Positions 235 through 39,792 of a stretch of 44,351 nucleotides of DNA are shown one piece after another. The DNA is from Reyranella sp. (lineage in GTDB: Bacteria; Pseudomonadota; Alphaproteobacteria; Reyranellales; Reyranellaceae): positions 1-44,351 of the forward strand of contig JAIETA010000127.1 in assembly GCA_019745575.1 (NCBI GenBank). The letters run 5' to 3'. The stretch's first letter is position 1. Every line of letters begins with the position of its first letter. The notes under the pieces are model-generated. The model saw only the letters and a program-made list of their open reading frames with translations. It made no database searches and was not told the DNA's origin. Made by a program: the position numbers and the translations under genes.

Positions 235-258
235 CATCAAATGATTTATGATTTGATG
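235..258. promoter_or_regulatory. inverted repeat, probable VapB operator
   Basis: CATCAAAT at 235-242 and ATTTGATG at 251-258 form perfect 8-bp arms around an 8-bp AT-rich spacer, ending one base before the vapB ATG. VapB-type ribbon-helix-helix antitoxins usually bind such palindromes over their own promoter. The site is far more AT-rich than its surroundings. The operator role is inferred from position and symmetry. Confidence 0.6.
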
Positions 259-259
259 T

Positions 260-508
260 ATGCGAACGACCCTGACTCTCGACCCCGATGTTGCCGCGCG
301 TCTGAAGCGCCTTCGCCAGCGCCGCGATGCTGGCCTCAAGGAAGTCGTGAACGACGTCCTTCGGGAGGGCTTGCGCTCTCTGGAGGAAAAGCCTCGCACC
401 CGCCGCAAGGCCTGGACGAAACCGCTCGATCTGGGTGAATCGCTGATCGGTCCCCTCGACAATGTCGCCGAAGCACTCGCAATCGCCGAAGGCGAAGCGT
501 TCCGGTGA
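260..508 (+). CDS. vapB: ribbon-helix-helix antitoxin of a VapBC-type pair
   Basis: This 82-residue protein begins with a beta strand (RTTLTLD) followed by two helices, the pattern of a ribbon-helix-helix DNA-binding domain of the DUF2191/VapB type at residues 1-40. The C-terminal half, rich in Pro, Leu, Ala and Glu, would be the toxin-binding tail. Family knowledge says it neutralises the PIN ribonuclease encoded next to it and represses the shared promoter. It overlaps the toxin gene by 4 bp (GTGA at 505-508), so the two are translationally coupled. An inverted repeat at 235-258 abuts its start codon and is the likely operator. Confidence 0.85.
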   Translation: MRTTLTLDPDVAARLKRLRQRRDAGLKEVVNDVLREGLRSLEEKPRTRRKAWTKPLDLGESLIGPLDNVAEALAIAEGEAFR

Positions 509-945
509 TCCTCGTCGACGCCAACATCCTGATCTATGCCACCAATCGACAAAGCGCGGCCCATGCCGAGGCTCGTGCCTGGCTCGAAGAGCGGCTGAAC
601 GACTCGGGCCGAGTCGGCCTGCCATGGATGTGTCTGTTGGCATTCCTGCGCCTTGCGACCAATCCACGGGTCATGACGCGACCCGCAAGCATGGTTGCTG
701 CGCGGGCACAAGTTCGCGCGTGGCTCGACTGCGATCAGGTCTGGGTACCGGCACCGGGCGAACGCCACGTCGAAATCCTGGACGACTTGCTGGCCTTGCC
801 AGGCATCCACGGCAATCTCGTCATGGACGCGCATCTTGCGGCGCTGGCGATCGAGCACGGTTTGCAGGTCTGCTCGACCGATTCGGACTTCGCACGTTTT
901 CCCGGTGCGAGGTGGGTCAACCCGCTGGCGGCAACGGCCAACTGA
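505..945 (+). CDS. vapC: PIN-domain ribonuclease toxin of a VapBC-type pair
   Basis: The 146-residue product is a whole PIN domain, the usual VapC size. The N-terminal strand ends in Asp5 (ILVDANI), and the C-terminal half carries Asp108 (VMDAH) and Asp126/Asp128 (TDSDF), which in this family bind Mg2+ for RNA cleavage. The mid-protein acidic residue usually seen near position 46 appears to be Ala46 (LLAFLRL); I recall related plant-associated toxins with the same motif, but this needs an alignment. Translation starts at a GTG overlapping the vapB stop codon. The gene converges on the DapA-like gene with only 3 bp between the stops. Confidence 0.88.
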   Translation: MILVDANILIYATNRQSAAHAEARAWLEERLNDSGRVGLPWMCLLAFLRLATNPRVMTRPASMVAARAQVRAWLDCDQVWVPAPGERHVEILDDLLALPGIHGNLVMDAHLAALAIEHGLQVCSTDSDFARFPGARWVNPLAATAN

Positions 946-948
946 GCC

Positions 949-1890
949 CTACTCCGCCGCGACCGCCATAGCCTGCTTGAGGCCGGGCATGGTGAAGCCG
1001 AGCTTGTCGAGCTTGGCGATCATGTCCAGGCCGGTCTTCTCGTCGGTCTCGACCAGCGGCGGGCGGACCGGATGCCAGTGCGCGTCGCTGCCGTAGTGGG
1101 CGATGACGTACTTCAGCGCCGGGATCATGACATAGCCCTGCATGACGCCGCGGACCTCGTTGATCCAGGCCTGCAGCTTCTCGCCTTCCGGCGTCGCGTG
1201 CTTCCTGTAGGTCTCGGCGATCTTGCCGGGATTGATATTGGCCGTGGCGCTGATGCAGCCCGCGCCGCCTGCCTTGACGTTCTCGATCAGGGGCTTCTCG
1301 TTGCCCGAGAAGACGTCGAAGCCGTCCCTGGCAAAGGCCTCGATCATGCTCCGGGTGTGCGACCAGTCGTCGGACGAATCCTTCATGCCGGCGATCTGCT
1401 TCGGGTAGGCCTTCATCAGCCGCTCGACCAGCTTGTGCGTGATCGGCACCGCCGACACCGGCGGGATGTGATAGAGATAGACGCGCAGCCGCTCGTCGCC
1501 GACGCGCTGCACGACCTCCGAGAAGAAGCGGAACAGCCCCTCCTCCGGCACGCCCTTGTAGTAGAAGGGCGGCAGCATCAACACGCCGCCGACGCCGAGC
1601 CTGGTCGCATGCGCGCTCACCTTGGCCGCTTCCGTGATCGAGCAGGCGCCGGTGCCGGGCATCATGCGCGCCACCGGCACGCCGGCGGCGACCGCGGCGT
1701 CGAGCAGGCCCATGCGCTCCTCGGCCGACATCGAGTTGGCCTCCGAGTTGGTGCCGAACACCGCGAGGCCGCAGTCCTGGCTCAGCAGCCACTTGCAGTG
1801 GGCAATGAAGCGGCCGACGTCCGGCGACAGATCGCGCTTGAACGGGGTGACGACCGGCGAAAGAACGCCTTTGATCCGCTGAGCGGCCAT
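949..1890 (-). CDS. dihydrodipicolinate synthase (DapA) family aldolase or dehydratase
   Basis: The 313-residue protein is a class I aldolase of the DapA/NAL superfamily, a TIM barrel forming a Schiff base with a 2-oxo acid. The catalytic lysine is Lys170 (AGMKDSS) and the proton-relay tyrosine is Tyr140 (YLYHIPP). The usual GTTGE substrate loop is altered to GTNSE at 46-50, arguing against lysine-pathway DapA and for a catabolic member such as a 2-keto-3-deoxy sugar acid enzyme. I start at the ATG at 1890 because GGGAG lies 10 bases upstream; the frame stays open farther upstream but without a ribosome site. It is divergent from an FAH-family gene 59 bp away, a frequent partner in sugar-acid or aromatic breakdown. 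The substrate is not determinable. Confidence 0.85.
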   Translation of the reverse strand: MAAQRIKGVLSPVVTPFKRDLSPDVGRFIAHCKWLLSQDCGLAVFGTNSEANSMSAEERMGLLDAAVAAGVPVARMMPGTGACSITEAAKVSAHATRLGVGGVLMLPPFYYKGVPEEGLFRFFSEVVQRVGDERLRVYLYHIPPVSAVPITHKLVERLMKAYPKQIAGMKDSSDDWSHTRSMIEAFARDGFDVFSGNEKPLIENVKAGGAGCISATANINPGKIAETYRKHATPEGEKLQAWINEVRGVMQGYVMIPALKYVIAHYGSDAHWHPVRPPLVETDEKTGLDMIAKLDKLGFTMPGLKQAMAVAAE

Positions 1891-1949
1891 GATCTTATTT
1901 CTCCCGGGAATGGCGCGCCTTTTCTGCAACGAAGCGCCGGAGACGTCCA

Positions 1950-3089
1950 GTGCCAGGTTCCGCAAGCGACATTCTTCCCGAGGACGGCACCGCCGGCACC
2001 CTGGTCGGCCGGATCTGGCGCAAAGGCAAGCCCGGCGGGCCGAGCGTGGTCGCCATCCGGCCCGACGGCGTGTTCGACATCACCACGGCGGTCCCCACGA
2101 CGGCCGATCTCTGCAACGCCCCCGATCCGGTGGCGCTTGCCCGGACGACGCGTGGCGAACGGCTGGGGGCGCTCGCCGACCTCGTGGGCGACCTCCTGGC
2201 GCCGATCGACCTGCAGGCCATCAAGGCGGCCGGCGTCACCTTCGCCGTCAGCCTGCTGGAGCGGCTGATCGAGGAGCACGCCAAGGGCGACCCGGCCCGC
2301 GCCGAGACGGTGCGGGGCGAACTGAACGCCATCATCGGCGCCGACGTCAGCACCATCCGGCCAGGCTCGGCCGAGGCCGAGGCGCTGAAGAAGTCGCTGA
2401 TGGCGCGCGGCGCCTGGTCGCCCTACCTCGAGGTCGGTATCGGTCCCTACGCCGAGATCTTCACCAAGGCGCCGCCGATGGCCGCCGTCGGTTACGGCGC
2501 CGAGATCGGCATCCGCCCCGACTCGGACTGGAACAACCCCGAGCCCGAAGTGACGCTGATCGCCAATGCCAGGGGCGCGATCGTGGGCGCCACGCTCGGC
2601 AACGACGTCAACCTGCGCGACATCGAAGGCCGCAGCGCCCTGCTGCTCGGCATCGCCAAGGACACTAACGGCTCCTGCGCGATCGGCCCGTTCATCCGCC
2701 TGTTCGACGACACCTTCGGCCTCGACGACGTGCGCCGCGCCAGGGTCGAGCTCGAAGTGACCGGCCCCGACCAGTTCCGCCTGCGCGGCGCCAACGACCT
2801 GTCCAGGATCAGCCGCGACCCGGCCGAACTGGTGGCCCAGGCGATGGGCGCCAACCACCAGTACCCCGACGGCATGGCGCTGATGACGGGCACACTGTTT
2901 GCGCCGACCGAGCCGCGCACCAAGGGCGGCACGGGCTTTACGCACATGGTGGGCGACCTCGTCTCCATCCGCTCGCCCAAGCTCGGCACCCTCACCAACA
3001 GGGTGAACCACTGCGACAGGATTCCGCCCTGGACGTTCGGAACGTCGGCCCTGATGCGCAACCTGGCGGCGCGCGGACTGTTGCGATGA
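1950..3089 (+). CDS. fumarylacetoacetate hydrolase (FAH) family protein
   Basis: This 379-residue protein has an FAH C-terminal domain from about residue 155. The expected divalent-metal ligands are Glu198, Glu200 (PEPEV) and Asp219 (GNDVN), and Lys237 precedes the family's G-P-F motif (IGPFI). FAH-fold enzymes hydrolyse acylpyruvates or dehydrate 2-keto-3-deoxy sugar acids; the long N-terminal part and the WNNPEPE motif resemble the latter group, but that is inference. GTG at 1950 is preceded by GGAG with 7 bases of spacing. The stop overlaps the amidase start (ATGA at 3086-3089), so the two are probably co-transcribed. With the divergent DapA-like gene it may form a small catabolic module. 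Confidence 0.82.
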   Translation: MPGSASDILPEDGTAGTLVGRIWRKGKPGGPSVVAIRPDGVFDITTAVPTTADLCNAPDPVALARTTRGERLGALADLVGDLLAPIDLQAIKAAGVTFAVSLLERLIEEHAKGDPARAETVRGELNAIIGADVSTIRPGSAEAEALKKSLMARGAWSPYLEVGIGPYAEIFTKAPPMAAVGYGAEIGIRPDSDWNNPEPEVTLIANARGAIVGATLGNDVNLRDIEGRSALLLGIAKDTNGSCAIGPFIRLFDDTFGLDDVRRARVELEVTGPDQFRLRGANDLSRISRDPAELVAQAMGANHQYPDGMALMTGTLFAPTEPRTKGGTGFTHMVGDLVSIRSPKLGTLTNRVNHCDRIPPWTFGTSALMRNLAARGLLR

Positions 3090-4507
3090 CCGACCTCACG
3101 CGCCTGCCCGCCGCGGTGCTGCGCGAGCAGATCGCCGCCCGGAAGGTTTCGCCGGTCGAACTCATGGAAGCGGTGCTGGCGCGCGCCGACAGGCTGCAGC
3201 CGATACTGAACTGCTTCATCACGCTCGTGCCGGAGCTGGCGCTCGAGGCGGCGCGGCGCGCCGAGCAGGCGGTGATGGCGGGCGACCCGCTCGGCCTGCT
3301 GCACGGCATTCCCTTCGCCGCCAAGGACCTCGTGAACACCGCCGGCGTGCGCACCACCTTCGGTTCGCTGCTGCACGAACACAACGTGCCGACGGAAGAC
3401 GCCGTGGCGGCGGCGCGGGTCAAGGCGGCAGGCGCGATCCTGTTCGGCAAGACCACGACCCCGGAATTCGGCCACAAGGCGCTGACCGACGCGCCACTGT
3501 TCGGCCGCACGCGCAATGCTTTTAGCGCCGCCCGCACCTCGGGCGGCTCAAGCGGCGGGGCCGCCGTCGCGGTGGCGGCGGGCATCGGGCCGATCGGCAT
3601 CGCCACCGACGGCGGCGGCTCGACCCGCATTCCTGCCGCGGCCAACGGCGTGGTCGGGCTAAAACAGAGCAACGGCGTCATCCCGCACAGCCAGGTGGCC
3701 GACCTGTTCGGCAACTACACCTATGTAACGCCGATGACGCGCACGGTGATGGACACAGCGCTGATGCTGCAGGCGATGGCGGGGCCGCATCCCTCGGATC
3801 CGTGGTCGATCGGCATCGCGCCGCAGGACTACCTGGCCGCCGCCCGGGCCGAGGGCGACCTTGCGGGCCGACGCGTGCTCTACAGCGCCACGCTGGGCAA
3901 CACGGCGGTGTCGGCCGACGTGCGCGACGCCTTCGAGCGGGCGCTGGGCAGGCTGCGCGAGCTCGGCGCCGAACTGGTCGAGCTCGACGAGGCCCTGCCC
4001 GACATGGAGCCGGTTTGGAAAATCACCAACCACACGACCTGGAAGGCGCGCTTCGACGACATGATCCGCCGCGACGGCAACCGCATGACGCCATCGCTGG
4101 TGCGCCAGGTGGCGATGGCGGCCGACTGGTCGGGCGCCGACTACCAGCGCGCGCAGTTCCAGCGCAGCGACCTCTTCCGCATGGTGCAGCGCTGGTTCGA
4201 ACGCGCCGACTATCTGGTGACGCCGACCATCTCGCGCACCGCGCTGCCGATCGAGCAGGACCTGTTCGACCCGATCGAGATCGACGGCGCCGTGGCGGGC
4301 GAGCTCCGGCGCAACTGGTTCCCCTACACCATGCCCTTCAACATCACCGGCCATCCGGCGATCACCGTCGGCTGCGGCTTCGGCGGCGACGGCCTGCCGG
4401 TCGGCCTGCAGATCGTCGGCCGCTTCCGCGACGAGGCCTCGATCCTGCGCGCCGCCGCGCTCTATGAGGCATCCGAGGACTGGCTGTCGCGCTGGCCAGA
4501 CTTGTGA
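3086..4507 (+). CDS. amidase signature family hydrolase
   Basis: The 473-residue protein is a complete amidase-signature enzyme. The Lys/cis-Ser/Ser triad is visible as Lys80 (FAAKD), Ser155 in GGSSGG and the nucleophile Ser179 in DGGGSTRIPAA; the 24-residue spacing between the serines equals that in characterised members. It should hydrolyse a carboxamide to acid plus ammonia in the cytoplasm. GatA is unlikely because gatB and gatC are not adjacent and the sequence is not GatA-like. The gene starts inside the FAH stop codon (ATGA) and ends 10 bp before the next gene, so it lies mid-operon. The substrate cannot be read from the sequence. Confidence 0.88.
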   Translation: MTDLTRLPAAVLREQIAARKVSPVELMEAVLARADRLQPILNCFITLVPELALEAARRAEQAVMAGDPLGLLHGIPFAAKDLVNTAGVRTTFGSLLHEHNVPTEDAVAAARVKAAGAILFGKTTTPEFGHKALTDAPLFGRTRNAFSAARTSGGSSGGAAVAVAAGIGPIGIATDGGGSTRIPAAANGVVGLKQSNGVIPHSQVADLFGNYTYVTPMTRTVMDTALMLQAMAGPHPSDPWSIGIAPQDYLAAARAEGDLAGRRVLYSATLGNTAVSADVRDAFERALGRLRELGAELVELDEALPDMEPVWKITNHTTWKARFDDMIRRDGNRMTPSLVRQVAMAADWSGADYQRAQFQRSDLFRMVQRWFERADYLVTPTISRTALPIEQDLFDPIEIDGAVAGELRRNWFPYTMPFNITGHPAITVGCGFGGDGLPVGLQIVGRFRDEASILRAAALYEASEDWLSRWPDL

Positions 4508-4517
4508 TGAGAGGGCT

Positions 4518-5216
4518 GTGAGCCGGCCGCCGCCCCTGACCGCCCAGGAGATCCAGGCCCGCGTGCTGCATCGCGACGGGCTGATCCTGGTGATCGACAA
4601 GCCGGCCGGGCTCGCCGTCCATGCCGGGCCGAGCCGCGCGCCCAACCTGGAAGAGTGCTTCGACGCTCTGCGCTTCGGCCTGCCGCGCCCGCCGGCCCTC
4701 GCCCACCGGCTCGACGCCGACACCTCGGGCGTGCTGGTGCTGGGCCGGCACCCGAAGGCGCTGGCCAAGCTCGGGCGGCTCTTCTCCGGCCACACGACCG
4801 AGAAAACCTACTGGGCGGTGGTGCAAGGCGCGCCGCCCGCCGACGAGGGCGTGTTCGACAAGCCGTTGCTCAAGATCAACAGCAAGACCGGCTGGACGGT
4901 GAAGGTGTCCGGCAAGGGTCAGACCGCCGTGACGCGCTACCGGACGCTCGGCCGCGCACCTGGAATGACCTGGCTGGAACTGAAGCCGGAGACCGGGCGC
5001 ACGCACCAGATCCGCGTCCATTGCGCCGATGCCGGCTGTCCGGTAATCGGCGACCGCTTTTACGGTCGCGCCAACTCCGGCCGGCAGCTGCATCTGCATT
5101 CGCGCGCCATCGTGCTGGCGCTGTCGAAGAACAAGCCGCCTGTCGTCGTCAGCGCGCCGCCCCCGCCGCACATGATCGACGCGCTCATGGCGTGTGGCTT
5201 CAATCCCGCGACCTGA
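4518..5216 (+). CDS. RluA-family pseudouridine synthase
   Basis: This 232-residue protein isomerises uridine to pseudouridine in RNA. The catalytic aspartate is Asp66 in the family motif AHRLDADTSG, and the motif GRTHQIRVH follows in the C-terminal half. There is no N-terminal S4 domain, so it is nearer to the short RluA/TruC-like group than to RluC/RluD; the RNA target is unknown. I prefer the GTG at 4518, ten bases after the amidase stop, with GAGAGG just upstream. The frame could begin at 4464, but that would overlap the amidase by 44 bp. It converges on the next gene, overlapping by 17 bp (5200-5216). Confidence 0.85.
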   Translation: MSRPPPLTAQEIQARVLHRDGLILVIDKPAGLAVHAGPSRAPNLEECFDALRFGLPRPPALAHRLDADTSGVLVLGRHPKALAKLGRLFSGHTTEKTYWAVVQGAPPADEGVFDKPLLKINSKTGWTVKVSGKGQTAVTRYRTLGRAPGMTWLELKPETGRTHQIRVHCADAGCPVIGDRFYGRANSGRQLHLHSRAIVLALSKNKPPVVVSAPPPPHMIDALMACGFNPAT

Positions 5217-5862
5217 CCCAGATCCGAAGCTTGTCGCCGGCCTCGAAACCCGCCGCGAGAGCGGCCTCCAGCTCGGCGCCGGATTCGTAGCCGACCACCG
5301 GCAACCGCGGAAAGGTCCGGGCGGATTGCAACATCAGCGAGCGCCACACCGCGGGTCCGTCGGCCGCCTGCGCGATCACGTTGGACAAGCCGACGACCCC
5401 CTCGGCACGATAAAGCATGCCGCCTGCCACGACCTCGAAGCCGCGATGGCCCGTGAACATCGCGAAGTCGGCATCGTCGAACGGCAGTCCAGCCGCACCG
5501 CTGGTTTGGCGCTGCCAGACGATGTCCGACGGCGGGCCGGCCGCCGGCATCGTGCCCTGGATCCAGCGCGCCTCGAACAGCAGATCGAAGCCGCGGCGCG
5601 ACAGATCGAGGGTGCCGAAACTGTCCTTCGCCGACCAGCGGCCGGGCAGGTTAGACTTCACCAGGATGTCGATCGTGTCCTGCTGTTCGGCCACCGCCGC
5701 CGCGTCGGACGCCAGCGTCACGAGGTTGGGATAGAAGCGCGGCACCGGCTGGGCGTTGACCCAGGCATGCGGCAGGAAGCGACCGGGATGGCCCGCGGCG
5801 CGGCAGACCGCGTCGCACCAGCGCGCGTTGTTGCGGGCCGCCGGGAGGGCAAAATCCTTCAG
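5200..5862 (-). CDS. uncharacterised protein, possibly GNAT-like, with apparent CTG start
   Basis: The protein-like frame begins right after the ABC permease and gives a product of about 220 residues. No ATG, GTG or TTG lies near the N-terminus, and the first such codon downstream (GTG, about 49 residues in) would remove conserved-looking sequence (AARNNARWCDAVCRA). The best candidate is CTG at 5862-5860, overlapping the permease stop as CTGA, with GAGGAAG seven bases upstream. The C-terminal motif VVGYESGAELEAALAAGF resembles GNAT N-acetyltransferase folds, but I see no clear acetyl-CoA loop. It is the last gene of the NEW3/ABC operon, so its role may be linked to that transporter. Confidence 0.65.
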   Translation of the reverse strand: MKDFALPAARNNARWCDAVCRAAGHPGRFLPHAWVNAQPVPRFYPNLVTLASDAAAVAEQQDTIDILVKSNLPGRWSAKDSFGTLDLSRRGFDLLFEARWIQGTMPAAGPPSDIVWQRQTSGAAGLPFDDADFAMFTGHRGFEVVAGGMLYRAEGVVGLSNVIAQAADGPAVWRSLMLQSARTFPRLPVVGYESGAELEAALAAGFEAGDKLRIWVRSRD

Positions 5863-6827
5863 GCGCGCACTTCCTCGCGCTGGAAGATCACGTAGGCCGC
5901 GGCGAACACCACGATCATGCCGGCGATCAGGCCGGTGATCTGCGGCCAGATCAGCAACAGGCTCTGGTCGAACGGCAGCGGCGCGCCGGGGATGACGCCG
6001 CGCATCTGCGCCGGCAGCAGGCTGCCGAACGTGCGCGTCTCGGGGTTGAGCAGGCCGAGCACGGCCTCGCTGAACAGGGTTCCCGGCGAGAGCCGCAACA
6101 GCGCGAAGCCCATCTGCTCGACGGCGAGGAATTCCTCGGCGCTGCGGATCTGCGAGGGCGCGAAGCCCAGCGTGATCGCCTCGGCGATCATCGGCCACAG
6201 CAGGAAGAAGAACAACCACAACCCGAGCGCGCAGAGCGCCGAGGTGGCGGCCGAACGGAAGATCACCGAGAACAGCAGCGAGACCGCCAGCCATACGCCG
6301 CCATAGGCGATCGCCGCCATCAGAAAGCAGGCCGCGCGCGCCACTTCGACGCCGCGCGGCGGCAGGCCGAGCAGCAGCAGGCCGGCACCGAACACGATCA
6401 GCCACAGCGCGGTCAGCGTGACGGCCAGCGTGGCGAGGCCGCCCAGGAACTTCCCGAGCAGCAGGGCGTCGCGGTAGATCGGCTGCGACAGCACGCGCGA
6501 CAGCGTGCGGCGGCTGAACTCGCTGTTCACCGAATCGAAACCCAGGCCGATCGCCATCAGCGGGATGATGAAGTTGAGGGCCAAGGCGAAGGAAATGGGC
6601 ATGCGCTCCGGCGCCAGCGTGAAGATGCGCAGAAACAGGAAAGGGTCGGCGGCGGACACGGTGCGCAGTTCCTGCAGAGAGGAGGCGACGGGAAAGGCGC
6701 CGAAGGCGATCACGAACAGCAGCAGCACCGTCATGCGGGCGCTCGACAGGTGATCGGCGAACTCCTTCATGAACACCGGGCCGAGGCCGGTGAAGGGCGA
6801 GCCCTGGCGTGCCTTGCTACGCGGCAT
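5859..6827 (-). CDS. ABC-2 type transporter permease
   Basis: This 322-residue integral membrane protein is the permease partner of the ATPase encoded immediately upstream. Hydrophobic segments can be seen near residues 30-50, 75-95, 125-160, 170-195, 200-230 and 295-315, and the motif [17 protein letters not shown] after the second segment is typical of ABC-2 permeases. A soluble loop (about 235-285) separates the last two helices, as in the NatB/gliding-type subgroup. The start ATG at 6827 overlaps the end of the ATPase gene by 11 bp, and the stop overlaps the CTG start of the following gene, indicating strict co-translation. The substrate is unknown. Confidence 0.85.
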
Positions 6828-7755
6828 GGCGCGCCTCCTGGAAGTAGCGCGTGTAGACCTCTTCCAGGCTGGGCTGCAGGTCGGCCAGCCGGGTGAGCGA
6901 GCCGCCGGAAGACACGATGCGCTGCGCCACGGCGGCGCGCACGTCGCGGTCGGCAACCACCCGCCACGTCCCCTCGCCTCCCGCCACCACGGTCTGCACG
7001 CCTTCGACGCCCTGCAAGGCGCCGGCGATGTCGATGCCGGAGGCCTCGACCAGAAGCGGATGGCCGGCCCCCAGCACCTGGTTGGCCAGCTCGACCACGG
7101 TCCCCATCAGCGCGATCCTGCCGTGGTTGAACAACGCCACCCGGTCGCAGACGCTCTGCACGCGGTCGAGCAGGTGCGACGACAGCAGTACCGCCACGCC
7201 CGCCTTCTTGAGGCCGCGGATCATCTCCAGCAGCTCGTGGGTGGCATGCGGGTCGAGGCCGGAGGTCGGCTCGTCGAGGATCGCCACCTCGGCCTTCTTC
7301 ATGACGATCTCCGCGATACCGAGGCGCTGACGCATGCCGCGCGAGAAAGTGGAGACCCGCTTGTCGAGCACGTCGGCGAGCTGGACGTTTTCCATGGCGT
7401 CGCTGATCCGCTTCTCGGCGTCGCGGCGCGGGATGGCGAGCAGGCGGGCGGTGTAGCGCAGGTTCTCGCGCGCCGTCAAATGGTCGTAGAAGCCCACGGC
7501 GTCGGGCAGATAACCCACGCGGCGCTTGACCTCGAGCGGCTGGCGCACCGGATCGAAGCCCAGCACGTCGACCGTGCCGCCGCTCGACTCGGTAAGGCCG
7601 AGCAGCATCAGGATGGTCGTCGTCTTGCCCGCCCCGTTCGGCCCCAGCAGGCCGAAGATCTCGCCGCGACGAACGTCGAGGTCGATGGCGTCCACGGCGC
7701 GGGCTGCGCCGTAGAGCTTCGACAGCCCGCGGATCTTGATGACGTCGTCGCTCAT
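6817..7755 (-). CDS. ABC transporter ATP-binding protein
   Basis: The 312-residue ATPase has Walker A GPNGAGKT at 38-45, an ABC signature FSRGMRQRL near 138-146 in place of LSGGQ, Walker [13 protein letters not shown] at 157-168 and a switch histidine in SSHLLD. The C-terminal 90 residues form the extra domain common in ABC-2 exporters. It should power the permease encoded downstream. I start at the ATG at 7755 ([10 protein letters not shown]), 11 bp after the stop of the NEW3 gene; an upstream in-frame extension would overlap that gene. No strong Shine-Dalgarno is visible, in line with coupling to the preceding gene. Confidence 0.9.
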
Positions 7756-7765
7756 CGCCGGCCGT

Positions 7766-8935
7766 CTACCGCCGACCGAAGCGCGCGACCGCACCCAGCA
7801 GCACCAGCAGCGCCACCGCGATGATGCCGATGCCGACCACGCCCCACAGCGTCGAGGTCGTGACGGTGATGCGGAAGTCCGCCGCGCTCGACTCGCCGCG
7901 GGCGGTGGCGCGGAACGAGGCCACGTAGTCGCCGGCGATCGCCTTGTCCGACGGCGTCACCACGACCTGCACGTCCTTCTTCTCGTTGGGCGCCAGCGCC
8001 GCGAGGCTCTTGGGATTGAACTCGACCTTCCAGTTGGTCGGTGCCGAGCCCGTCATCTCGATGTCGTCGACCGCGGCGGTGCCGTCGTTGGAGAGCTGCA
8101 GCGTGTAGGTCGAGCTCTTGCCGACCTCGGCCTCGCCCGAGAGGCGCCCGTCCTTGGTCGACAGCGCCAGCCGGCCCTGGCCGCTGACCTGCAGGGTGAC
8201 GCGCAGCTCGGCCGTCGCGCCCTCGGACGCGACCTTGACCAGCACCGGGTAGTCGCCCGCCTTGACGTCGCGCGGCGGCGTCACCTTGAGCTTGATGTCC
8301 TTGGTCTGTCCCGCCTCGATCGGAATCGAGCTGATCTCGTTGGAGCCGAAGCCCTCGGTGAAGGTGGTCTGGAAGTTGGCCGGGCCCTGCGCCGACAGCG
8401 CCACGGTGAGGTCCTTGCCGCTGTCGTTGCCGACGGTCACCGTGTATTCGAACGACGAGCGCGGCGTGCCGCGCAGCGACGGCAGCCGCGACTTCATGCT
8501 GAGCTTGGCCGGCGCCTCGGTGCCCACCGTGAGGGCAAGCGGCAACTCGGCCGACTGAAGCCGCGCTCCCTTGGCGCTCAGCACGACCTGTTGCGTGCCG
8601 GGCCTCGCGTCCTTCGGCACTTCGACGCGAAGCTGCAGGCTGACGCTCTCGTTCTGGCCGGGCATCGCCGACGCCACGGGCTGGCCGCCGCCCAGGATGT
8701 CGATCTTCCAGCCCGCCGGCACGCCGGACAGCGACAAGGCCATCGCCTCCGGCGCCAGGCCGGAATTCTGCAGCTTGACGCGGATGGTCGTGATCTCGCC
8801 CGCCCGCACGGTCTGGGCCGGGTAGTCGGTCAGCAGGAACAGTCCCTGCATGACCGCCGGCTGCGACTGGGCGGTGGCCGGCGACGCGCCGGCGGCGCTG
8901 GCGAGAAGAACAAGCAAGGCGATCAGACGGCGCAT
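7766..8935 (-). CDS. exported NEW3-domain protein with C-terminal membrane anchor
   Basis: The 389-residue product has an N-terminal signal peptide (hydrophobic core [13 protein letters not shown], cleavage likely after ATAQ near 23). Repeated beta-rich Ig-like modules of the NPCBM-associated NEW3 type follow at about 30-135, 145-245 and 255-355, each with a pattern like GxxxxxxVxVxNxG and PxGW. A C-terminal transmembrane helix (about 363-385) ends in Arg-rich residues. The protein is thus predicted to sit outside the cytoplasmic membrane, anchored at its C-terminus. NEW3 proteins are often encoded directly before an ABC-2 ATPase and permease, as here, so it is probably an accessory part of the transporter. 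The ligand is unknown. Confidence 0.8.
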
Positions 8936-8960
8936 CGTGGGTGTCCTCGGAAGATCGGAG

Positions 8961-9575
8961 TCAGGCGGCGGCGCTGGGACGCGCCTTCATGCGGCCGAAC
9001 CAGGCCGTGAGATTCTTGCAGTCGGGGCTGAGCGGCTGGCCGACATTGCCCATGAAGTCGACAAAGGCGAACAGGAAGATGTCGGCCATCGTCAGCTTGT
9101 TGCCGGCCACGAAAGGCTTGCCGCCCATCAGCCCGTCGAGCCAGACGAGCTTGTCGCGCGCCGCGGCCTTGAGTTCGTCGGCGGCCTGCGGGATGCAGCG
9201 GATGCGGTTCTGGAAGAGCTTCAGCCCCTCGGCGTAGCGAAAGCCGTTGGCCGCCGGCTCGACGATGTTGAGGTCGATGCGGCGGACCCACATGCGCGTC
9301 TTGGCGCGCTCCTCGGGCGTGTCGCCGATCAGCGAGGGCGTGTCCTTCTTGATCTCGTCGACGTACTCGCAGATCGCGGTGATCTCGGCCAGGACGCTGC
9401 CGTCGTCCAGTTCCAGCGCCGGCAATTGGCCCGCGGGGTTGACCTTGAGGTAGGGCTCGCGCCGGTTCTCGCCGCCGCGCAGGTCGACATCGAGCTTGGG
9501 CACGTCGAAGCCCTTCTCGGCCATGAACATGCGGACCATCCGCGGATTGGGGCCGACCGAATTGTAGAACTTCAT
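8961..9575 (-). CDS. glutathione S-transferase family protein
   Basis: The 204-residue protein has the usual two-domain GST layout: a thioredoxin-like N-terminal domain (1-80) with the cis-proline motif GQLPALELDDG and the glutathione-binding acidic motif (LAEITAICEYVDE), then an all-helical C-terminal domain with NKLTMADIFLFAF. Ser6 lies at the position where many bacterial GSTs have the catalytic Ser or Cys. It would conjugate or reduce electrophiles using glutathione in the cytosol. It follows the alcohol dehydrogenase gene by 26 bp on the same strand, with an AGGGAGGA-like ribosome site before its ATG, so it may belong to the IclR-headed operon. Confidence 0.85.
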   Translation of the reverse strand: MKFYNSVGPNPRMVRMFMAEKGFDVPKLDVDLRGGENRREPYLKVNPAGQLPALELDDGSVLAEITAICEYVDEIKKDTPSLIGDTPEERAKTRMWVRRIDLNIVEPAANGFRYAEGLKLFQNRIRCIPQAADELKAAARDKLVWLDGLMGGKPFVAGNKLTMADIFLFAFVDFMGNVGQPLSPDCKNLTAWFGRMKARPSAAA

Positions 9576-9601
9576 CTTTTTCCTCCCTTAAGGCCCCGAT
9601 C

Positions 9602-10621
9602 TTACCGCCAGGGCTCGACCAGGATTTTGGTGTGCTGTTCCGGATTGGCCAGCGCCTCGAAGGCTCCCTTTACACCATCCAGCCCGACCTTGGACGTGAT
9701 CAGCGCGCCCGCGTCGACCTCGCCTTCGGCCAGCAGGCGGAGCGCCCGGGCGAACTCTTCCGGCGTGTAGCCCAGGACGAACTGCAGGTTCAATTCCTTG
9801 AAGATGGCGAACATCGGCTCGATCGTGTCGGGCTCCATGCAGACGCCGGCCACCACGATGCGGGCGTCGCGCGGCGCCTTCTCGAAGACCTGCTGCAGCA
9901 GGCCCGGCACGCCGACGCATTCGAAGATCGCCACGCGCTTGCCCGGCGCCAGCCGGGCGTAAGGCGACTCCCGGGCCGGATCGACCACCACATCGGCGCC
10001 CATCCTGGCCGCAAGCTCGCGCCGCGTGGGCGAGAAATCGGCCGCCACGATCGGCCGGATGCCTTTTAGCCGCAGCGCGGCGATCACCGCGAGGCCGACC
10101 GGGCCGCAACCCACGACCAGCGGCGCCTCTTCGCCACCGAGCGCGCCCTTCTCGACCGCGTGCACGCCCACCGCCAGCGGTTCGGTGAGCGCCGCGTGGT
10201 CGGTCGGCAGGCCGTTCGGCACTTCCAGCATCAAGGGCGCCGACAGCAGCATCTGCTCGGCATAGCCGCCGACATAGGCGTTCGAGTAGCCCATGCCCTT
10301 GGGTCCGTCGGCCTCGATCATCATCGGCATGGCGCACACGCGCGCGCCCGGCTTTAGCGTGCGCGCCGTGTCCGGGCCGTAGTCGAGCACCTCGCAGCAG
10401 AACTCGTGGCCGAACACGATGTCGCGCGACAGGTCCATCGGCACGCGGCCCGGTGTACGCCTGGCGACCGCCACCATGCGATGGGCATGCTTGGCGGCAT
10501 GCAGGTCGGAGCCGCAGATGCCGCAGGCCAGCGTCTTCACCAGGACCTGGCCCGGCCGCGGTACCGGTGCCGGCAGGGTGTCGACGACGATGTCGCCGCC
10601 GCGGAAGATCGCCGCCCTCAT
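9602..10621 (-). CDS. zinc-dependent alcohol dehydrogenase (MDR family)
   Basis: The 339-residue protein is a medium-chain dehydrogenase/reductase. Catalytic zinc ligands appear as Cys36 (GICGSDLH) and His72-Glu73 (FGHEF), and the NAD(P)-binding Rossmann motif is VVGCGPVGLAVI. The loop that normally carries four cysteines for a structural zinc is replaced by a stretch with no such cluster, so only one zinc is expected. It should oxidise an alcohol or polyol with NAD(P). Its start overlaps the stop of the alpha/beta hydrolase gene (ATGA at 10618-10621), and it lies in a run with IclR, M24 and hydrolase genes that looks like one catabolic operon. Confidence 0.87.
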   Translation of the reverse strand: MRAAIFRGGDIVVDTLPAPVPRPGQVLVKTLACGICGSDLHAAKHAHRMVAVARRTPGRVPMDLSRDIVFGHEFCCEVLDYGPDTARTLKPGARVCAMPMMIEADGPKGMGYSNAYVGGYAEQMLLSAPLMLEVPNGLPTDHAALTEPLAVGVHAVEKGALGGEEAPLVVGCGPVGLAVIAALRLKGIRPIVAADFSPTRRELAARMGADVVVDPARESPYARLAPGKRVAIFECVGVPGLLQQVFEKAPRDARIVVAGVCMEPDTIEPMFAIFKELNLQFVLGYTPEEFARALRLLAEGEVDAGALITSKVGLDGVKGAFEALANPEQHTKILVEPWR

Positions 10622-11514
10622 GCGATGAATTCCTTCGTCGTCTGGACGAAATCCGTCAACCGGTCGTGGTGCACCCAGTGGCCGGCATTGTCGAACTCGA
10701 CCACCTTGGCGTTCCGGAAATGCCGCAGCCGGCCGTCCTTCTGCGGATTGGAAGCCCAGCTTTCCTTGCCGTAGACCAGCAGCGTCGGGCAGGCGATCTC
10801 GGTCCAGAGCTTTTCGATGTCCTCGTAGCTCATGTCGTAGGGCGCCCAGGCGCGGACATAGTTGTCGAACTTCCAGCTATAGGTGCCGTCCTCGTTCTGG
10901 TTGACGCCCTGCTGCGTGAGATGGCGCGCCTGCTCGGCCGAGAGGTGCTTGTTCTCCTCCTGCATGCGCCTGAAGGCGTCTTCGATGGTCGGATACTTGC
11001 GCGCGCCGCGGCCCGACAGCTTGCGCTGTTCGTCGACCCAGTCGCGCATGCGCTGGGCCATCGTCTTCTGGCCGCGCTCGGCGATCATCTTGGGCGACGG
11101 CCCCAGCCCTTCGATGGCCACCAGCTTGCGCACCATCTCGGGATAGATGCCGGCGTAGCGCAGGCAGATGTTGCCGCCCAGCGAATGCGCCACGATCGTC
11201 ACCGGCGCCAGCGCCTGCTGGTGGATGAGCTGGGCCAGGTCGTAGATGTAGGCCGCCATCGAATAGTTGCCGTCGGGCGACCACTGGCTGTCGCCGTGCC
11301 CGCGCAGGTCTGGACAGATCACATGCCAGTCCTGGCGCAGCGCCTGGGCGACCCAGTCCCAGTTACGGCAATGGTCGCGCCCGCCATGCACCAGCAGCAG
11401 CGGCGGCGCCTCGGGATTGCCCCAGTCGACGTAATGGAGACGCAGACGCTGAGAGAAAAAGACCCGGGAAGTGGGCCCCGGCATGCCGTTCAGAGTGCTC
11501 ATGCACTCTAACAT
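10618..11514 (-). CDS. alpha/beta hydrolase
   Basis: This 298-residue protein shows the alpha/beta-hydrolase order: oxyanion motif LLVHGG near 41-45, the nucleophile elbow AHSLGG with Ser111, and the catalytic histidine His279 in NAGHWVHHD. The lid region (about 140-215) is long and charged. It could act on an ester, lactone, amide or C-C bond; the family is too broad to choose. The ATG at 11514 is 6 bp after the M24 gene's stop; a second ATG four codons in (11502) is an equally possible start. It is coupled to the downstream dehydrogenase by an ATGA overlap. Confidence 0.83.
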   Translation of the reverse strand: MLECMSTLNGMPGPTSRVFFSQRLRLHYVDWGNPEAPPLLLVHGGRDHCRNWDWVAQALRQDWHVICPDLRGHGDSQWSPDGNYSMAAYIYDLAQLIHQQALAPVTIVAHSLGGNICLRYAGIYPEMVRKLVAIEGLGPSPKMIAERGQKTMAQRMRDWVDEQRKLSGRGARKYPTIEDAFRRMQEENKHLSAEQARHLTQQGVNQNEDGTYSWKFDNYVRAWAPYDMSYEDIEKLWTEIACPTLLVYGKESWASNPQKDGRLRHFRNAKVVEFDNAGHWVHHDRLTDFVQTTKEFIA

Positions 11515-11520
11515 ACCGGA

Positions 11521-12732
11521 TCAGGACACCGTGCAGGAAGCGATGTCCTTGGGTGGCCCCGGCAACCTCGACACTTCCTTTCCGACCAGGACGACGTCGG
11601 CGCAGCGAAAGCCGCCGACTCCAGGCACGTAGAGCCCAGGTTCGATGGCGTAGAGTTCGCCCGCTTCGAGCGGGCGGCCGTTGAAAGGCACGTCCTCGGG
11701 AAAATCGTGCTGCACGACGCCGATGCCGTGGCCACTGCGGTGCAGCAGATGCTCGCTGAAGCCCGCCGCGTCGATCACAGCGCGGGCGGCCGCGTCGATG
11801 GCCGACACCGGCCGGTCGGCGGTAGCGGCATCGATTCCCGCCTCTTGCGCCGCCACGGCACACTCGTGCAACGCCCGCCGGCGTCCATCCGGCCGCCCGA
11901 TCTGCCAGGTTCGCGCCAGCTCCATCACCATACCATTGAGGCGCGTCACCAGAGTGCTGATGGCGACGCCATCGGCCTCGACCCGGCGGCCGCAGTCGGC
12001 GCCGTCGCCGTGCGGCGAGGCGGAGGCCGGGCCGCTGACGGTGTGCGCCTTGACCAGCGAGAAATTCGCCGCCGGAAAGCGCCGCTCTGCTTCCTCGTGC
12101 AGCCGCGCCGCTACGGCGAGGTCGGCCTGCCGCACGGAACGGCCCGGGCGCAGGACGTCGCGGTAATGCGGCATCACCGTGGCAGAGAGTTCGGCAAGCG
12201 CCGCCACCGTCGCAATCTCCTCGCGATGCTTGATCCATCGGGCCGGCCGCAGTGCCGCATTGACGTTCACCAGCTCGAGCCCGGGCAGCCGTGCCTTGGC
12301 ATCGGCCAGAAGGCCGCTCACGGCGTCGCAGCCGATCCGCGCCTTGGCGAGGCCTCGGGCGGCCAGCGTGTCGGCCACGATTTCGCGCCACGCCGTCGCC
12401 GGCCGCGCGCCGGGACGCAGATGCGGCGTCTCCGAATAGAAGATCAGGCGATCCACCCACAGCGTGCCGCGCCGGCGTTCGGCATCGAAGAGATGTCGGC
12501 CCTGATCGGCAACGATGGCGAAGGAGTCTCCCGACGTCGGCAGCACGGCGAGGAACGGCCGCTCGAACGACAGGTCGGTCATGTCGTGGTTGGAGACGAA
12601 GGAAAAGAAGTCGGCGCCGCTGAAGGCGAGCGCATCGACGCCGCTGGCGCGCATGACCATGCGCAACCGCGCGTGCCGGTGATCCCGCACGGCACTCGAC
12701 AGGCGATCGATAGCGAATTGCCTGGCCGTCAT
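11521..12732 (-). CDS. M24-fold (aminopeptidase P/creatinase-like) protein lacking the metal ligands
   Basis: The 403-residue protein has a creatinase N-terminal domain (1-165) and a pita-bread M24 domain (170-385). Canonical M24 metallopeptidases use Asp, Asp, His, Glu, Glu. By motif spacing these positions here are Thr260, Glu271 (MELARTW), His335 (GHGIG), Glu364 (IEPGLY) and Ala378 (FRCADVVLV), so three of five ligands are changed and a dinuclear metal site is unlikely. Metal-free members such as creatinase and ectoine hydrolase cleave amidine or amide bonds in small molecules, a better guess than peptidase. The start overlaps the iclR stop (ATGA), placing it directly under that regulator's transcript. 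Confidence 0.8.
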   Translation of the reverse strand: MTARQFAIDRLSSAVRDHRHARLRMVMRASGVDALAFSGADFFSFVSNHDMTDLSFERPFLAVLPTSGDSFAIVADQGRHLFDAERRRGTLWVDRLIFYSETPHLRPGARPATAWREIVADTLAARGLAKARIGCDAVSGLLADAKARLPGLELVNVNAALRPARWIKHREEIATVAALAELSATVMPHYRDVLRPGRSVRQADLAVAARLHEEAERRFPAANFSLVKAHTVSGPASASPHGDGADCGRRVEADGVAISTLVTRLNGMVMELARTWQIGRPDGRRRALHECAVAAQEAGIDAATADRPVSAIDAAARAVIDAAGFSEHLLHRSGHGIGVVQHDFPEDVPFNGRPLEAGELYAIEPGLYVPGVGGFRCADVVLVGKEVSRLPGPPKDIASCTVS

Positions 12733-13535
12733 CCCGGCAGCGCCGCTTCGATGGCCGAGGCCGCGGCGCGCAGCTCGGGCAGCAGCCGGGTCATCGCCAC
12801 CTCCGGCGAGGTGCGCTGCAGGCTGGTGCTGAGATTGAGCGCGGCGACCGGCCGGCCACCGGCGCGCCCACGCAGCGGCACGGAGAGGCCCGCAATTCCG
12901 TCATCCATTACGCCGCTCAAGTAACAGAAGCCGTCGCGGCGGGCGGCCGCGACAAGGCCGCGGATGTCGGCCTCCTCGAACGGCGTGCGCTCGGTGTAGC
13001 GCCGACGCGGCCACTGCTTCAGGAAGTCCGCAAGCTGAGTGGGCTCTAGCGCACCCAGCAGGATCAATCCCATCGACGAGGTGTGCGCCGGAATGCGCGC
13101 ACCGGGATCCAGCCGGAGATGCAGGGCACGCGAAGACAGAGCCCGCACGACGTAGACGACATCCGGCAGATCGAGCACGCCGATCGACACCGTCTCGTTC
13201 AGCCGCTCGGCCAGCCGCTTGGCGACAGGCTCGCCGACGCCGAACAACGGCTGCGTCGACAGCCAGGTGAAACCAAGCTCGAGGACCCGCGGCGTCAGCG
13301 CGTAGCGTTTGCCGTCGTAGCTCGCATAGCCGAGCTGCTGCAGTGTCATCAGCAACCTGCGCGCGCCGGCACGTGTCAACCCCGCCGCCGCGGCGGCCTC
13401 GGCCGAGGTAAGTGCCGCACGGCCCGAGCCGAAGGCGCGGAGAAGGGCCAGGCCGCGGGCGAACGACTGCACTGCGACTCGCTCCTTCTTCTCGACCTTT
13501 CGGGGATCGCCTTTCACCACTCGATGCCACTCCAT
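12729..13535 (-). CDS. IclR family transcriptional regulator
   Basis: From the ATG at 13535 the protein has 268 residues: an N-terminal winged helix (about 20-80, with VQSFARGLALLRAFG leading into the helix-turn-helix) and a C-terminal IclR effector domain (about 95-265, with VRALSSRALHLRLDPG and SLSVPLRG-type motifs). IclR proteins sense small carboxylic or aromatic acids and usually control neighbouring catabolic genes. The frame is open far upstream, but that stretch reads like noise. GTG codons at 13517 and near 13478 are alternative starts. It is divergent from the binding-protein gene at 13674 and leads the M24-hydrolase-dehydrogenase run, so it may regulate both sides. Confidence 0.85.
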   Translation of the reverse strand: MEWHRVVKGDPRKVEKKERVAVQSFARGLALLRAFGSGRAALTSAEAAAAAGLTRAGARRLLMTLQQLGYASYDGKRYALTPRVLELGFTWLSTQPLFGVGEPVAKRLAERLNETVSIGVLDLPDVVYVVRALSSRALHLRLDPGARIPAHTSSMGLILLGALEPTQLADFLKQWPRRRYTERTPFEEADIRGLVAAARRDGFCYLSGVMDDGIAGLSVPLRGRAGGRPVAALNLSTSLQRTSPEVAMTRLLPELRAAASAIEAALPG

Positions 13536-39068: not shown

Positions 39069-39614
39069 TCAATGATCGCTGACGCCGCCTTCGAGCGCGG
39101 CGTGCGTCGTCGCCGTCATGGGCGCGATGCCGAAGGCGCGGTGCAGGCGGCCCAGCATGATGAAGGCGCCGATCACCAGCCCGAGTTCCACGATCTCCTC
39201 GGGCGTGAAGAGGCTGCCGAGTTCGGCCATGAACGAATCGTCGATCGTCTCGTGCCCGGCGGCCAGCCTGACGGCGAAGTCGACGGCGCCCGCCTCGCGC
39301 GGCGACATCGCGCGCCGGCCGTCGAGTTTGGGCAGCAGGTCGTCGTAGAGACCGGGAGCCCGATCCTCGGGCTCTCGCGCCGTCAGTCAACGCTGGCAGT
39401 CGTTCAGACCGGCGATCCTGAGCCGCACCAACTCCTTCAGGGCGAACGGCAGGACGCCGCCGTACTTGAGCGGGCGATAGAAGTCGAGGAAGCGGCCGAA
39501 CGCCTGCGGACTGTGGCCGTAGGTGGCGAACATCTCGTCGCCGGTGCGGCGGTGAAGTTCGCGCAGCCCGTCGTGGGCGATCGCGGCGGTCGGCAGCAGC
39601 GGCAGTCTCGCCAT
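39069..39614 (-). CDS. CMD/AhpD-like protein with in-frame TGA at the CXXC motif: candidate selenoprotein (or freshly broken gene)
   Basis: Read through one TGA (39389-39387), this frame gives 181 residues of a carboxymuconolactone decarboxylase/AhpD-like protein. The first part has ELVRLRIAGLNDCQR (Glu61, Cys73); the second has IDDSFMAELGSLFTPEEIVELGLVIGAF. In AhpD the proton-relay Glu lies 12 residues before the first cysteine of CXXC, the same spacing as Glu61-Cys73. Residue 76, where the second redox cysteine belongs, is the TGA, giving Cys-Gln-Arg-Sec. No other stop or frameshift occurs over 181 codons, and a perfect hairpin follows the TGA by 12 nt (39356-39374). AhpD-like selenoproteins are known. 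A TGC/TGT-to-TGA mutation or a sequencing error would look the same. ATG at 39614 is my start; GTG or ATG codons up to 39641 are possible. Confidence 0.72.
39356..39374 (-). promoter_or_regulatory. candidate bacterial SECIS hairpin
   Basis: On the minus strand, GAGCCCGA, loop GGA, then TCGGGCTC form a perfect 8-bp stem; opening the last A-U pair gives a 5-nt AGGAU loop. The stem begins 12 nt after the in-frame TGA, and the apical loop begins 20 nt after it, starting with G. Bacterial SECIS elements lie just downstream of UGA inside the coding region, with a G in the first loop positions and a UGA-to-loop distance of about this size. GC-rich DNA also makes hairpins by chance, so this is supporting rather than decisive evidence. 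Confidence 0.45.
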
Positions 39615-39699: not shown

Positions 39700-39792
39700 T
39701 GGCGGAGAGGAAGGGATTCGAACCCTCGATAGGGGTTTACCCCCTATAACGGTTTAGCAAACCGCCGCCTTCGACCGCTCGGCCACCTCTCC
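39700..39792 (-). tRNA. tRNA-Ser (anticodon GCU)
   Basis: The minus strand folds as a class II tRNA. The acceptor stem GGAGAGG (39792-39786) pairs with CCTCTCC (39710-39704). The anticodon loop has GCT at 39758-39756 within GGTTTGCTAAACC. A long variable arm has paired ATAGGGG and CCCCTAT, and the T loop is GGTTCGAATCC. Discriminator G39703 is followed by an encoded CCA (39702-39700). The long variable arm and anticodon identify a serine tRNA reading AGC/AGU. A consensus promoter lies 50 bp upstream (39842-39870). Confidence 0.95.

What the first reader, a model, noticed from the sequence alone, without database searches (positions are those of the whole stretch)
39069..39614. Candidate CXXU selenoprotein of the CMD/AhpD-like family
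The sequence shows a full-length CMD/AhpD-like frame with one in-frame TGA, in the codon where the second cysteine of CXXC should be (Cys73-Gln-Arg-TGA76). The proton-relay Glu61 lies 12 residues before Cys73, matching AhpD (Glu118-Cys130). The frame is intact for about 105 codons past the TGA, and the downstream part is clearly the same family. A random nonsense change has little reason to fall on the redox cysteine. AhpD-like selenoproteins are an established group; this particular protein subfamily with CQRU may not be described. The position corresponding to the AhpD histidine (four residues after the second Cys) is Arg80.
Basis: partly seen in the sequence, partly recalled or inferred. 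Interest (0 to 1): 0.93.

Follow-up and report, generated by a model that had tools for sequence, protein, structure and literature searches.

The report
Selenocysteine-dependent AhpD-like redox enzyme
This bacterial gene has a UGA codon exactly where related proteins have an active-site cysteine, followed by a conserved RNA hairpin, so the UGA is predicted to be read as selenocysteine, giving a likely antioxidant enzyme of the AhpD kind: a new branch of a selenoprotein type known since 2005.

Summary
Window 39069-39614 (minus) is a 181-codon AhpD/CMD-like frame with one internal stop, TGA at codon 76, in Cys73-Gln-Arg-TGA. The selenocysteine reading is strongly supported. The same bin carries tRNA-Sec(UCA), selA and selB; selD was not found in this 90.7% complete MAG, but 7 of 7 relatives checked have it. 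All eight clade members found at DNA level (52-80% identity) have TGA there. Across 106 distinct homologous genes examined, the column is TGA (61), Cys (43) or Phe (2 paralogues outside the clade that lack both redox residues). A hairpin with a G-initial 3-nt loop 20 nt after the UGA meets published bSECIS rules in 8 of 8, keeps 60 of 64 pairs and covaries at 4 of 8. Pseudogene and sequencing error are effectively excluded. Selenium insertion, the reaction (likely AhpD-type thiol/selenol peroxidase) and the substrate remain inferred. CxxU AhpD-like and CMD-like selenoproteins have been known since 2005; new here is a clade with no Cys member found, Arg at both relay-His positions, and no curated model that names the window protein. 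New member of a known kind.

The parts
39069..39614 (-). AhpD/CMD-like gene, 181 residues with codon 76 read as Sec, terminal stop TGA
   Evidence: homologues
39387..39389 (-). in-frame TGA, codon 76, predicted Sec codon (Cys133 position of AhpD)
   Evidence: TGA in 8 of 8 clade members; TGA or Cys in 104 of 106 distinct genes
39356..39374 (-). bSECIS-like hairpin, 8 bp with loop GGA, loop begins 20 nt after the UGA; MFE -13.4 kcal/mol
   Evidence: rules in PMC13188914
39396..39398 (-). Cys73, first residue of CxxU (Cys130 position of AhpD)
   Evidence: invariant in the 44-row alignment
39432..39434 (-). Glu61, position of the AhpD proton-relay Glu118
   Evidence: invariant in 8 of 8 clade members; at least 90% in 44 rows
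39375..39377 (-). Arg80, at the AhpD His137 position
   Evidence: invariant in 8 of 8 clade members

Best explanation
The gene at 39069-39614 (minus strand) carries a UGA at codon 76, present in all eight clade members found at DNA level, that is predicted to be read as selenocysteine and would form a Cys73-x-Arg-Sec76 redox pair in a likely AhpD-type thiol/selenol peroxidase. Shown by sequence or computation: the frame, the TGA at the redox-Cys column, the covarying hairpin that fits the bSECIS rules, tRNA-Sec, selA and selB in the same bin, and an AhpD-like predicted fold (pLDDT 93, modelled with Cys in place of Sec). Inferred: SelB bound to the hairpin would deliver Sec-tRNA-Sec to the ribosome. 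Sec76, at the position of AhpD Cys133, would attack the peroxide as a selenolate, be oxidised to selenenic acid, and be resolved by Cys73 as a selenenylsulfide that a cellular thiol donor reduces. Glu61 would relay the proton, with Arg75 and Arg80 at the two His positions of the AhpD relay lowering the selenol pKa. The electron donor and the physiological substrate are unknown.
For: (1) The column is TGA in 61, Cys in 43 and Phe in 2 of 106 distinct genes; the two Phe genes have Asp at position 73 and lie next to a TGA paralogue. Within the aligned stretch the only other TGA is one at query position 174 of L099. (2) 8 of 8 clade members have TGA. In the protein database, 7 proteins end exactly at CxR and 9 are C-terminal parts that begin after the stop. 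(3) Hairpin: 93.8% of 64 cells paired against 27-53% when slid by 1 to 3 columns; 4 of 8 pairs changed on both sides; covariation score reached by 0 of 500 shuffles. A strong hairpin (at least 6 bp, score at least 16) sits at the site in 52 of 61 TGA genes against 6 of 43 Cys genes. (4) tRNA-Sec(UCA) 73 bits, selA 551 bits, selB 446 bits on contig C285, beside a formate dehydrogenase alpha gene with TGA at codon 202. tRNA-Sec in 4 of 4 genomes of L059-L062 by Rfam and ARAGORN; selD in 7 of 7 relatives searched. (5) Fold: pLDDT 93.2; best PDB match by E-value D. radiodurans AhpD 6k40, TM 0.74. (6) Tree: the clade is one group (SH-aLRT 99) of 8 Sec and 3 Trp rows with no Cys.
Against: selD not found in the bin above the cut-off; of the two weak hits one is a 328-aa frame after a NusB-like frame (read as ThiL from memory), the other lies in a 779-aa open frame and was not examined. 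Contig and sel cluster are joined only by binning. Genomes of L110-L112 were not searched for sel genes. The synonymous-codon control is weak gene by gene: 6 of 5000 draws match the window, but 400, 763 and 549 of 5000 for L110, L111 and L062; only 14 of 61 TGA genes reach p 0.05, though 0 of 43 Cys genes do. Two of five pair measures are not exceptional (23 and 140 of 500 shuffles reach them). Three database proteins of the clade show Trp at the site (P0002, P0023, P0024); read here as TGA translated by code 4, but their DNA could not be seen. No conserved gene neighbours support a function. Peroxidase activity rests on homology, and both His of the AhpD relay are Arg here. No promoter-like match.
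Confidence: 0.84

Rival explanations
1. Selenoprotein as above, but the CxRU pair is a general disulfide reductase or AhpC-reducing adaptor, or a reductive dehalogenase like Bmp8, rather than a peroxidase.
For: AhpD itself serves as adaptor to AhpC (PMC3141380 passages). The debrominase Bmp8 is among the structural matches (6ohj, TM 0.66). No neighbour points to peroxide.
Against: Glu61 and the CxxC-type spacing of peroxidatic AhpD are kept; the best fold matches are AhpD/peroxidase-related proteins. No dehalogenation gene was among the 20 neighbouring frames scanned.
Confidence: 0.3
2. A pseudogene: the TGA is a nonsense mutation in a former CxxC gene.
For: One in-frame stop; Cys homologues at about 30-40% identity exist.
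Against: Same TGA in 8 of 8 clade members, protein-like substitution pattern on both sides of it in the five compared, covarying hairpin, no Cys member of the clade found.
Confidence: 0.01
3. Two separate genes, or TGA read as tryptophan by another code or near-cognate read-through.
For: Three database proteins have W at this site.
Against: TGA also ends this frame (codon 182); tRNA-Sec and selAB are present; the column is the redox Cys; proteins closely similar to the W ones (P0006, P0008, P0009) end at the site.
Confidence: 0.02
4. Sequencing or assembly error at 39387-39389.
For: Reads not available.
Against: The same codon in other genome assemblies, L059-L062 and L110-L112.
Confidence: 0.005

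Closest known systems
AhpD-like CxxU selenoproteins (TIGR01926 / COG2128 group; Sargasso Sea 2005 and GOS 2008)
   Same: AhpD-like protein with Sec as the last residue of CxxU (PMC1088965, PMC2398784, PMC13188914; passages seen)
   Different: The window protein scores 23.2 bits against the 81.8 cut-off of TIGR01926. Motif CxRU with Arg80. Whether the published sets contain members of this clade was not testable, as their sequences are not in the passages seen.
CMD-like (PF02627) CxxU selenoprotein
   Same: Domain and Sec position
   Different: PF02627 score is below its cut-off (20.4 against 23)
NCBIfam NF053654 YciW-related (seleno)protein, NF041238 CFYUT, NF041047 GSU3128 family
   Same: AhpD-related families named (seleno)protein
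   Different: Window protein 19 bits against 310 for NF053654 and 10.7 against 175 for NF041238; no listed hit to NF041047. The other seven clade members also hit NF053654 (8 of 8, best E 8.5e-11), but their bit scores were not shown.
Mycobacterium tuberculosis AhpD (1gu9), D. radiodurans AhpD (6k40), PA0269 (2o4d)
   Same: Fold (6k40 TM 0.74; PA0269 0.57), Glu plus CxxC active site
   Different: Cys not Sec; His132 and His137 of M. tuberculosis AhpD are Arg75 and Arg80 here; M. tuberculosis AhpD itself matches the model poorly (TM 0.47, E 2.1)
Bmp8 debrominase (6ohj)
   Same: Fold match (TM 0.66)
   Different: 14% identity; acts on bromopyrroles by its title; no such context seen here

Membership tests
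Bacterial selenoprotein gene | In-frame UGA at a position that is Cys in homologues | tested here: met
   61 TGA, 43 Cys, 2 Phe (redox-dead paralogues outside the clade) of 106 distinct genes
Bacterial selenoprotein gene | bSECIS: loop 3-9 nt, stem 4-16 bp, G in first two loop positions, 16-37 nt from UGA, MFE at most -7.5 | tested here: met
   8 of 8 clade members: loop 3 nt starting with G, 6-8 bp, 20 nt, -10.1 to -13.4 kcal/mol (rules)
Bacterial selenoprotein gene | selA, selB, selC in the genome | tested here: met
Bacterial selenoprotein gene | selD in the genome | tested here: inconclusive
   Not found in the 90.7% complete bin; present in 7 of 7 relatives chosen, 3 of them listed as same genus
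Bacterial selenoprotein gene | Se physically incorporated | not testable with these tools
   needs 75Se or mass spectrometry
AhpD-like family | Helical AhpD/CMD fold | tested here: met
   predicted model and PDB matches
AhpD-like family | Glu 12 residues before CxxC(U) | tested here: met
   Glu61, Cys73, codon 76
AhpD-like family | His four residues after the second Cys (His137; described as invariant in the proteins of PMC3141380) | tested here: not met
   Arg80 in 8 of 8; Arg also in CRSCMAIR Cys homologues
TIGR01926 peroxidase-related / AhpD-like selenoprotein | Score over the curated cut-off | tested here: not met
   23.2 against 81.8 bits
NF053654 YciW-related (seleno)protein | Score over the curated cut-off | tested here: not met
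   19 against 310 bits
AhpD peroxidase | Peroxide reduction | not tested

The most novel reading that the evidence does not exclude
A Sec-obligate branch of the AhpD fold (no Cys form found), shared by alphaproteobacterial and Rokubacteriota genomes with a patchy spread that suggests lateral transfer, in which two arginines replace the relay histidines and stabilise a selenolate: a selenoperoxidase, or reductive dehalogenase, chemistry distinct from AhpD, and one tip of a large unlisted radiation of CxxU AhpD-like selenoproteins in Rokubacteriota.
Probability: 0.25. Interest if true: 0.6.

Novelty: new member of a known kind. Interest (0 to 1): 0.42.

Why it matters
Gene callers cut such genes at the Sec codon, so the database entries of this clade are truncated or misread. 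A clade with no known Cys form is also hard for homology-based selenoprotein finders: the deep-Sep authors state that their method may miss selenoproteins lacking Cys homologues (PMC12013277 passages). The 8-member alignment and covarying hairpin give a ready model for annotation, and the TGA-bearing AhpD-like genes of Rokubacteriota are a good place to study how Sec and Cys exchange.

Tried and rejected
Pseudogene, sequencing error, stop-plus-second-gene and alternative code were each weighed and rejected (see rivals). The clade was not found in viral contigs. Operon clues: Pfam scans of 20 neighbouring frames around six of the eight loci showed no shared neighbour (L110 and L112 not scanned); ARAGORN found one tRNA, the tRNA-Ser upstream, in the window and none in seven relatives' loci, so that neighbour is not conserved. 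Rfam found no SECIS at the site (only the tRNA reached its gathering score). The synonymous-codon test is weaker than the covariation test and is reported as such. A fixed-register pair count over all 61 TGA genes gives only 62% pairing (32-54% slid), because other groups use another register (loop at +18, +19 or +21); over 30 loci of the Rokubacteriota search it is 84% (34-48% slid). My first tally missed two paralogues: in L086 and L092 the script scored a neighbouring TGA gene above the gene the search had matched; the check found those matched genes to have Asp and Phe at positions 73 and 76, and the counts now include them. I considered naming the host genus from memory (Reyranella; one literature search gave nothing relevant) and left it out as untested.

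Full report
OBSERVATION. The minus-strand frame 39614-39069 reads MARLPLLP...CQR-TGA-LTAR...GVSDH-TGA: 181 codons with one internal stop, TGA at codon 76 (39389-39387). Pfam CMD covers residues 36-78 at E 5e-4, under its cut-off; NCBIfam gives sub-threshold hits to TIGR01926 (residues 19-165, across the TGA), the AhpD core domain and two (seleno)protein models. The 105 open codons after the TGA would occur by chance about 11% of the time at this base composition, so the frame length alone proves little.

MACHINERY. The window is contig C355 of a 4.9 Mb, 364-contig MAG (90.7% complete). Contig C285 (19.6 kb) of the same bin holds tRNA-Sec (Rfam 73 bits; ARAGORN anticodon TCA), selB (446 bits) and selA (551 bits), together with fdhD, fdhE and the three subunits of a formate dehydrogenase-N; its alpha subunit has an in-frame TGA at codon 202 and, read through, matches TIGR01553 at 1445 bits. 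selD was not found: the better of two weak hits is a 328-aa frame after a NusB-like frame, which I read as ThiL (recalled, not scanned); the other was not examined. In 7 of 7 relatives that I chose, three of them listed as the window's genus, selD is over the cut-off, so its absence here is most simply missing sequence. tRNA-Sec is over the cut-off in 4 of 4 genomes that carry L059-L062 and is confirmed by ARAGORN; the genomes of L110-L112 were not searched.

HOMOLOGUES. One scan of a collection of one genome for each of 84,980 species, by two peptide patterns, returned four loci at 52-80% identity, all with TGA at codon 76. Searches of 65 congeneric genomes, 385 of the class and 95 of the Rokubacteriota locus's phylum gave the rest of the clade: the window, L059, L060 (the same contig place as L139, hence congeneric with the window), L061 (= L109), L062, L110, L111, L112. 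It is rare and patchy: 2 of 65 congeneric genomes, 1 of 385 drawn from the class (the window's own), 4 of 95 in that phylum, 1 of 15 in the order of L062. Submitter labels of L059 (Acidobacteriaceae) and L060 (Asaia bogorensis) disagree and were not checked.

Over the loci kept (loci are given only for best matches; 123 extracted with the window, 104 distinct, none under the score limit of 80), the column aligned to codon 76 is TGA in 61 and Cys in 43, Cys73 is Cys in all, and the only other TGA within the aligned stretch is at query position 174 of L099. A re-check of every frame in these loci added two genes that this extraction had passed over, in L086 and L092: each stands beside a TGA paralogue and has Asp at 73 and Phe at 76. 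So of 106 distinct genes 61 are TGA, 43 Cys and 2 have lost both redox residues; none of the latter two kinds is in the clade. In the 107 matches, 95 hold a TGA and 12 hold no stop; the TGA position was verified only for the 30 loci fetched there. That search used a Sec-based profile, so it is not a fair sample of all CMD genes.

Protein databases show the same from the other side. Of 116 proteins carry the motif region: 95 have Cys, 7 end exactly at CxR, 3 have Trp (P0002, P0023, P0024); 11 lack it, of which 9 are C-terminal parts starting after the stop and 2 diverge before it. One search scored only the 7999 candidates sharing most words. The nearest full-length Cys proteins (CRSCMAIR type) are about 30-40% identical and fall outside the clade. 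The three Trp proteins are JGI predictions on contigs of about 1 kb; closely similar proteins P0006, P0008 and P0009 stop at the site, so I infer TGA read by code 4, unverified.

SECIS. In the window the 19 nt GAGCCCGA-GGA-TCGGGCTC start 12 nt after the TGA; the loop starts 20 nt after it. The published bSECIS rules (3-9 nt loop, 4-16 bp stem, G in the first two loop positions, 16-37 nt spacing, MFE at most -7.5; PMC13188914 passages) are met by 8 of 8 clade members, with MFE -10.1 to -13.4 kcal/mol. On the gapless alignment of the eight, 60 of 64 cells pair (93.8%; 27-53% when slid by 1-3 columns), 4 of 8 pairs have changes on both sides, and the covariation score is reached by 0 of 500 shuffles. 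Two weaker measures: the number of pairs with both-side changes was reached by 23 of 500 and further pair types by 140 of 500. The encoded residues change with it (EDR, SAK, SSG in window, L061, L062), so the RNA helix rather than the peptide is kept. A strong hairpin is present at the site in 52 of 61 TGA genes and 6 of 43 Cys genes; at ten other offsets (30-300 nt) it is present in 3-18 of 60 or 61 and 1-12 of 43. The synonymous-codon test is significant for the window (6 of 5000) but not for every member; 14 of 61 TGA genes and 0 of 43 Cys genes reach 0.05.

FOLD AND TREE. A 44-row alignment (a chosen part of the set) leaves only Cys73 and position 76 invariant. AlphaFold2 (Cys in place of Sec) gives pLDDT 93.2, pTM 0.86, helices only. 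Foldseek against the PDB: D. radiodurans AhpD 6k40 (TM 0.74), peroxidase-related 2prr and 2oyo, 3c1l, PA0269, and the debrominase Bmp8. A quick ML tree of 141 rows (the 104 loci and 37 of the 116 database proteins) with the Sec/Cys column masked puts the clade together (SH-aLRT 99; 8 Sec, 3 Trp, no Cys) and needs 6 Sec/Cys changes by parsimony, of which well-supported branches force only 2 or 3; many deep branches are long and unsure.

MECHANISM. For M. tuberculosis AhpD, Glu118, Cys130, His132, Cys133 and His137 with a water form a proton relay, a mechanism described as supported by mutagenesis and kinetics (PMC3141380 passages). Mapped here: Glu61, Cys73, Arg75, Sec76, Arg80. The likely cycle is selenolate attack on a peroxide by Sec76, resolution by Cys73, and reduction by an unknown thiol donor. 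The role of the two arginines is my inference. No neighbour supports a particular substrate.

KNOWN OR NEW. AhpD-like (27 sequences, COG2128) and CMD-domain (4) selenoproteins with CxxU were reported in 2005 (PMC1088965), again in 2008 as AhpD-like 1 and 2 (PMC2398784), and are listed in a 2026 review with TIGR01926, PF02627, NF041047 and NF041238 (PMC13188914); passages seen. Literature searches on selenoprotein or selenocysteine with AhpD, AhpD-like, carboxymuconolactone decarboxylase, NCBIfam, model names and Rokubacteria (listings) did not show this clade, in an open-access library; that is not proof of absence. So it is a new member, with some variant features, of a known kind.

Noticed in passing
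G000 contig C285 (L050) 248-13436: Compact Sec gene cluster: fdhD, selC, selB, selA, fdhE and formate dehydrogenase-N gamma, beta and alpha genes, with TGA at codon 202 of the alpha gene, a second predicted selenoprotein gene of the bin.
   Followed up: yes
L113-L138 and further matches: Rokubacteriota genomes carry many AhpD-like genes with a TGA: 95 of 107 matches, up to four TGA-bearing matches per genome, with motifs such as CATU, CFTU, CHYU, CRYU; several Sec groups on the tree.
   Followed up: partly
among L010-L036, L150, L156, L157 (window's genus): Two other AhpD-like TGA groups in congeneric genomes: CPFU-(I/V/M)DIN (18 distinct loci) and CYYU-IPTH (5), with their own hairpins (loop at +18/+19 in 17 of the 18, +21 in the CYYU group). 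One search found neither in the window's bin.
   Followed up: partly
L086 953-2034 and L092 947-2034: Adjacent AhpD-like pairs about 150 bases apart: a CSYU gene with TGA, then a paralogue with Asp and Phe in place of both redox residues; possibly an active and an inactive partner.
   Followed up: partly
P0002, P0023, P0024; P0006, P0008, P0009; P0114: Database artefacts at the Sec codon: Trp at the site, proteins truncated there, and one (P0114) with a second Pfam domain (PF03972) joined to the clade's N-terminal part.
   Followed up: partly
L104 (G063:C2:114596-115540): selD of the Rokubacteriota genome has one in-frame TGA, possibly a Sec-containing SelD.
   Followed up: no
window 39700-39792 (-): tRNA-Ser(GCT) just upstream; its complement also resembles Rfam RF04351 below the gathering score.
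   Followed up: no
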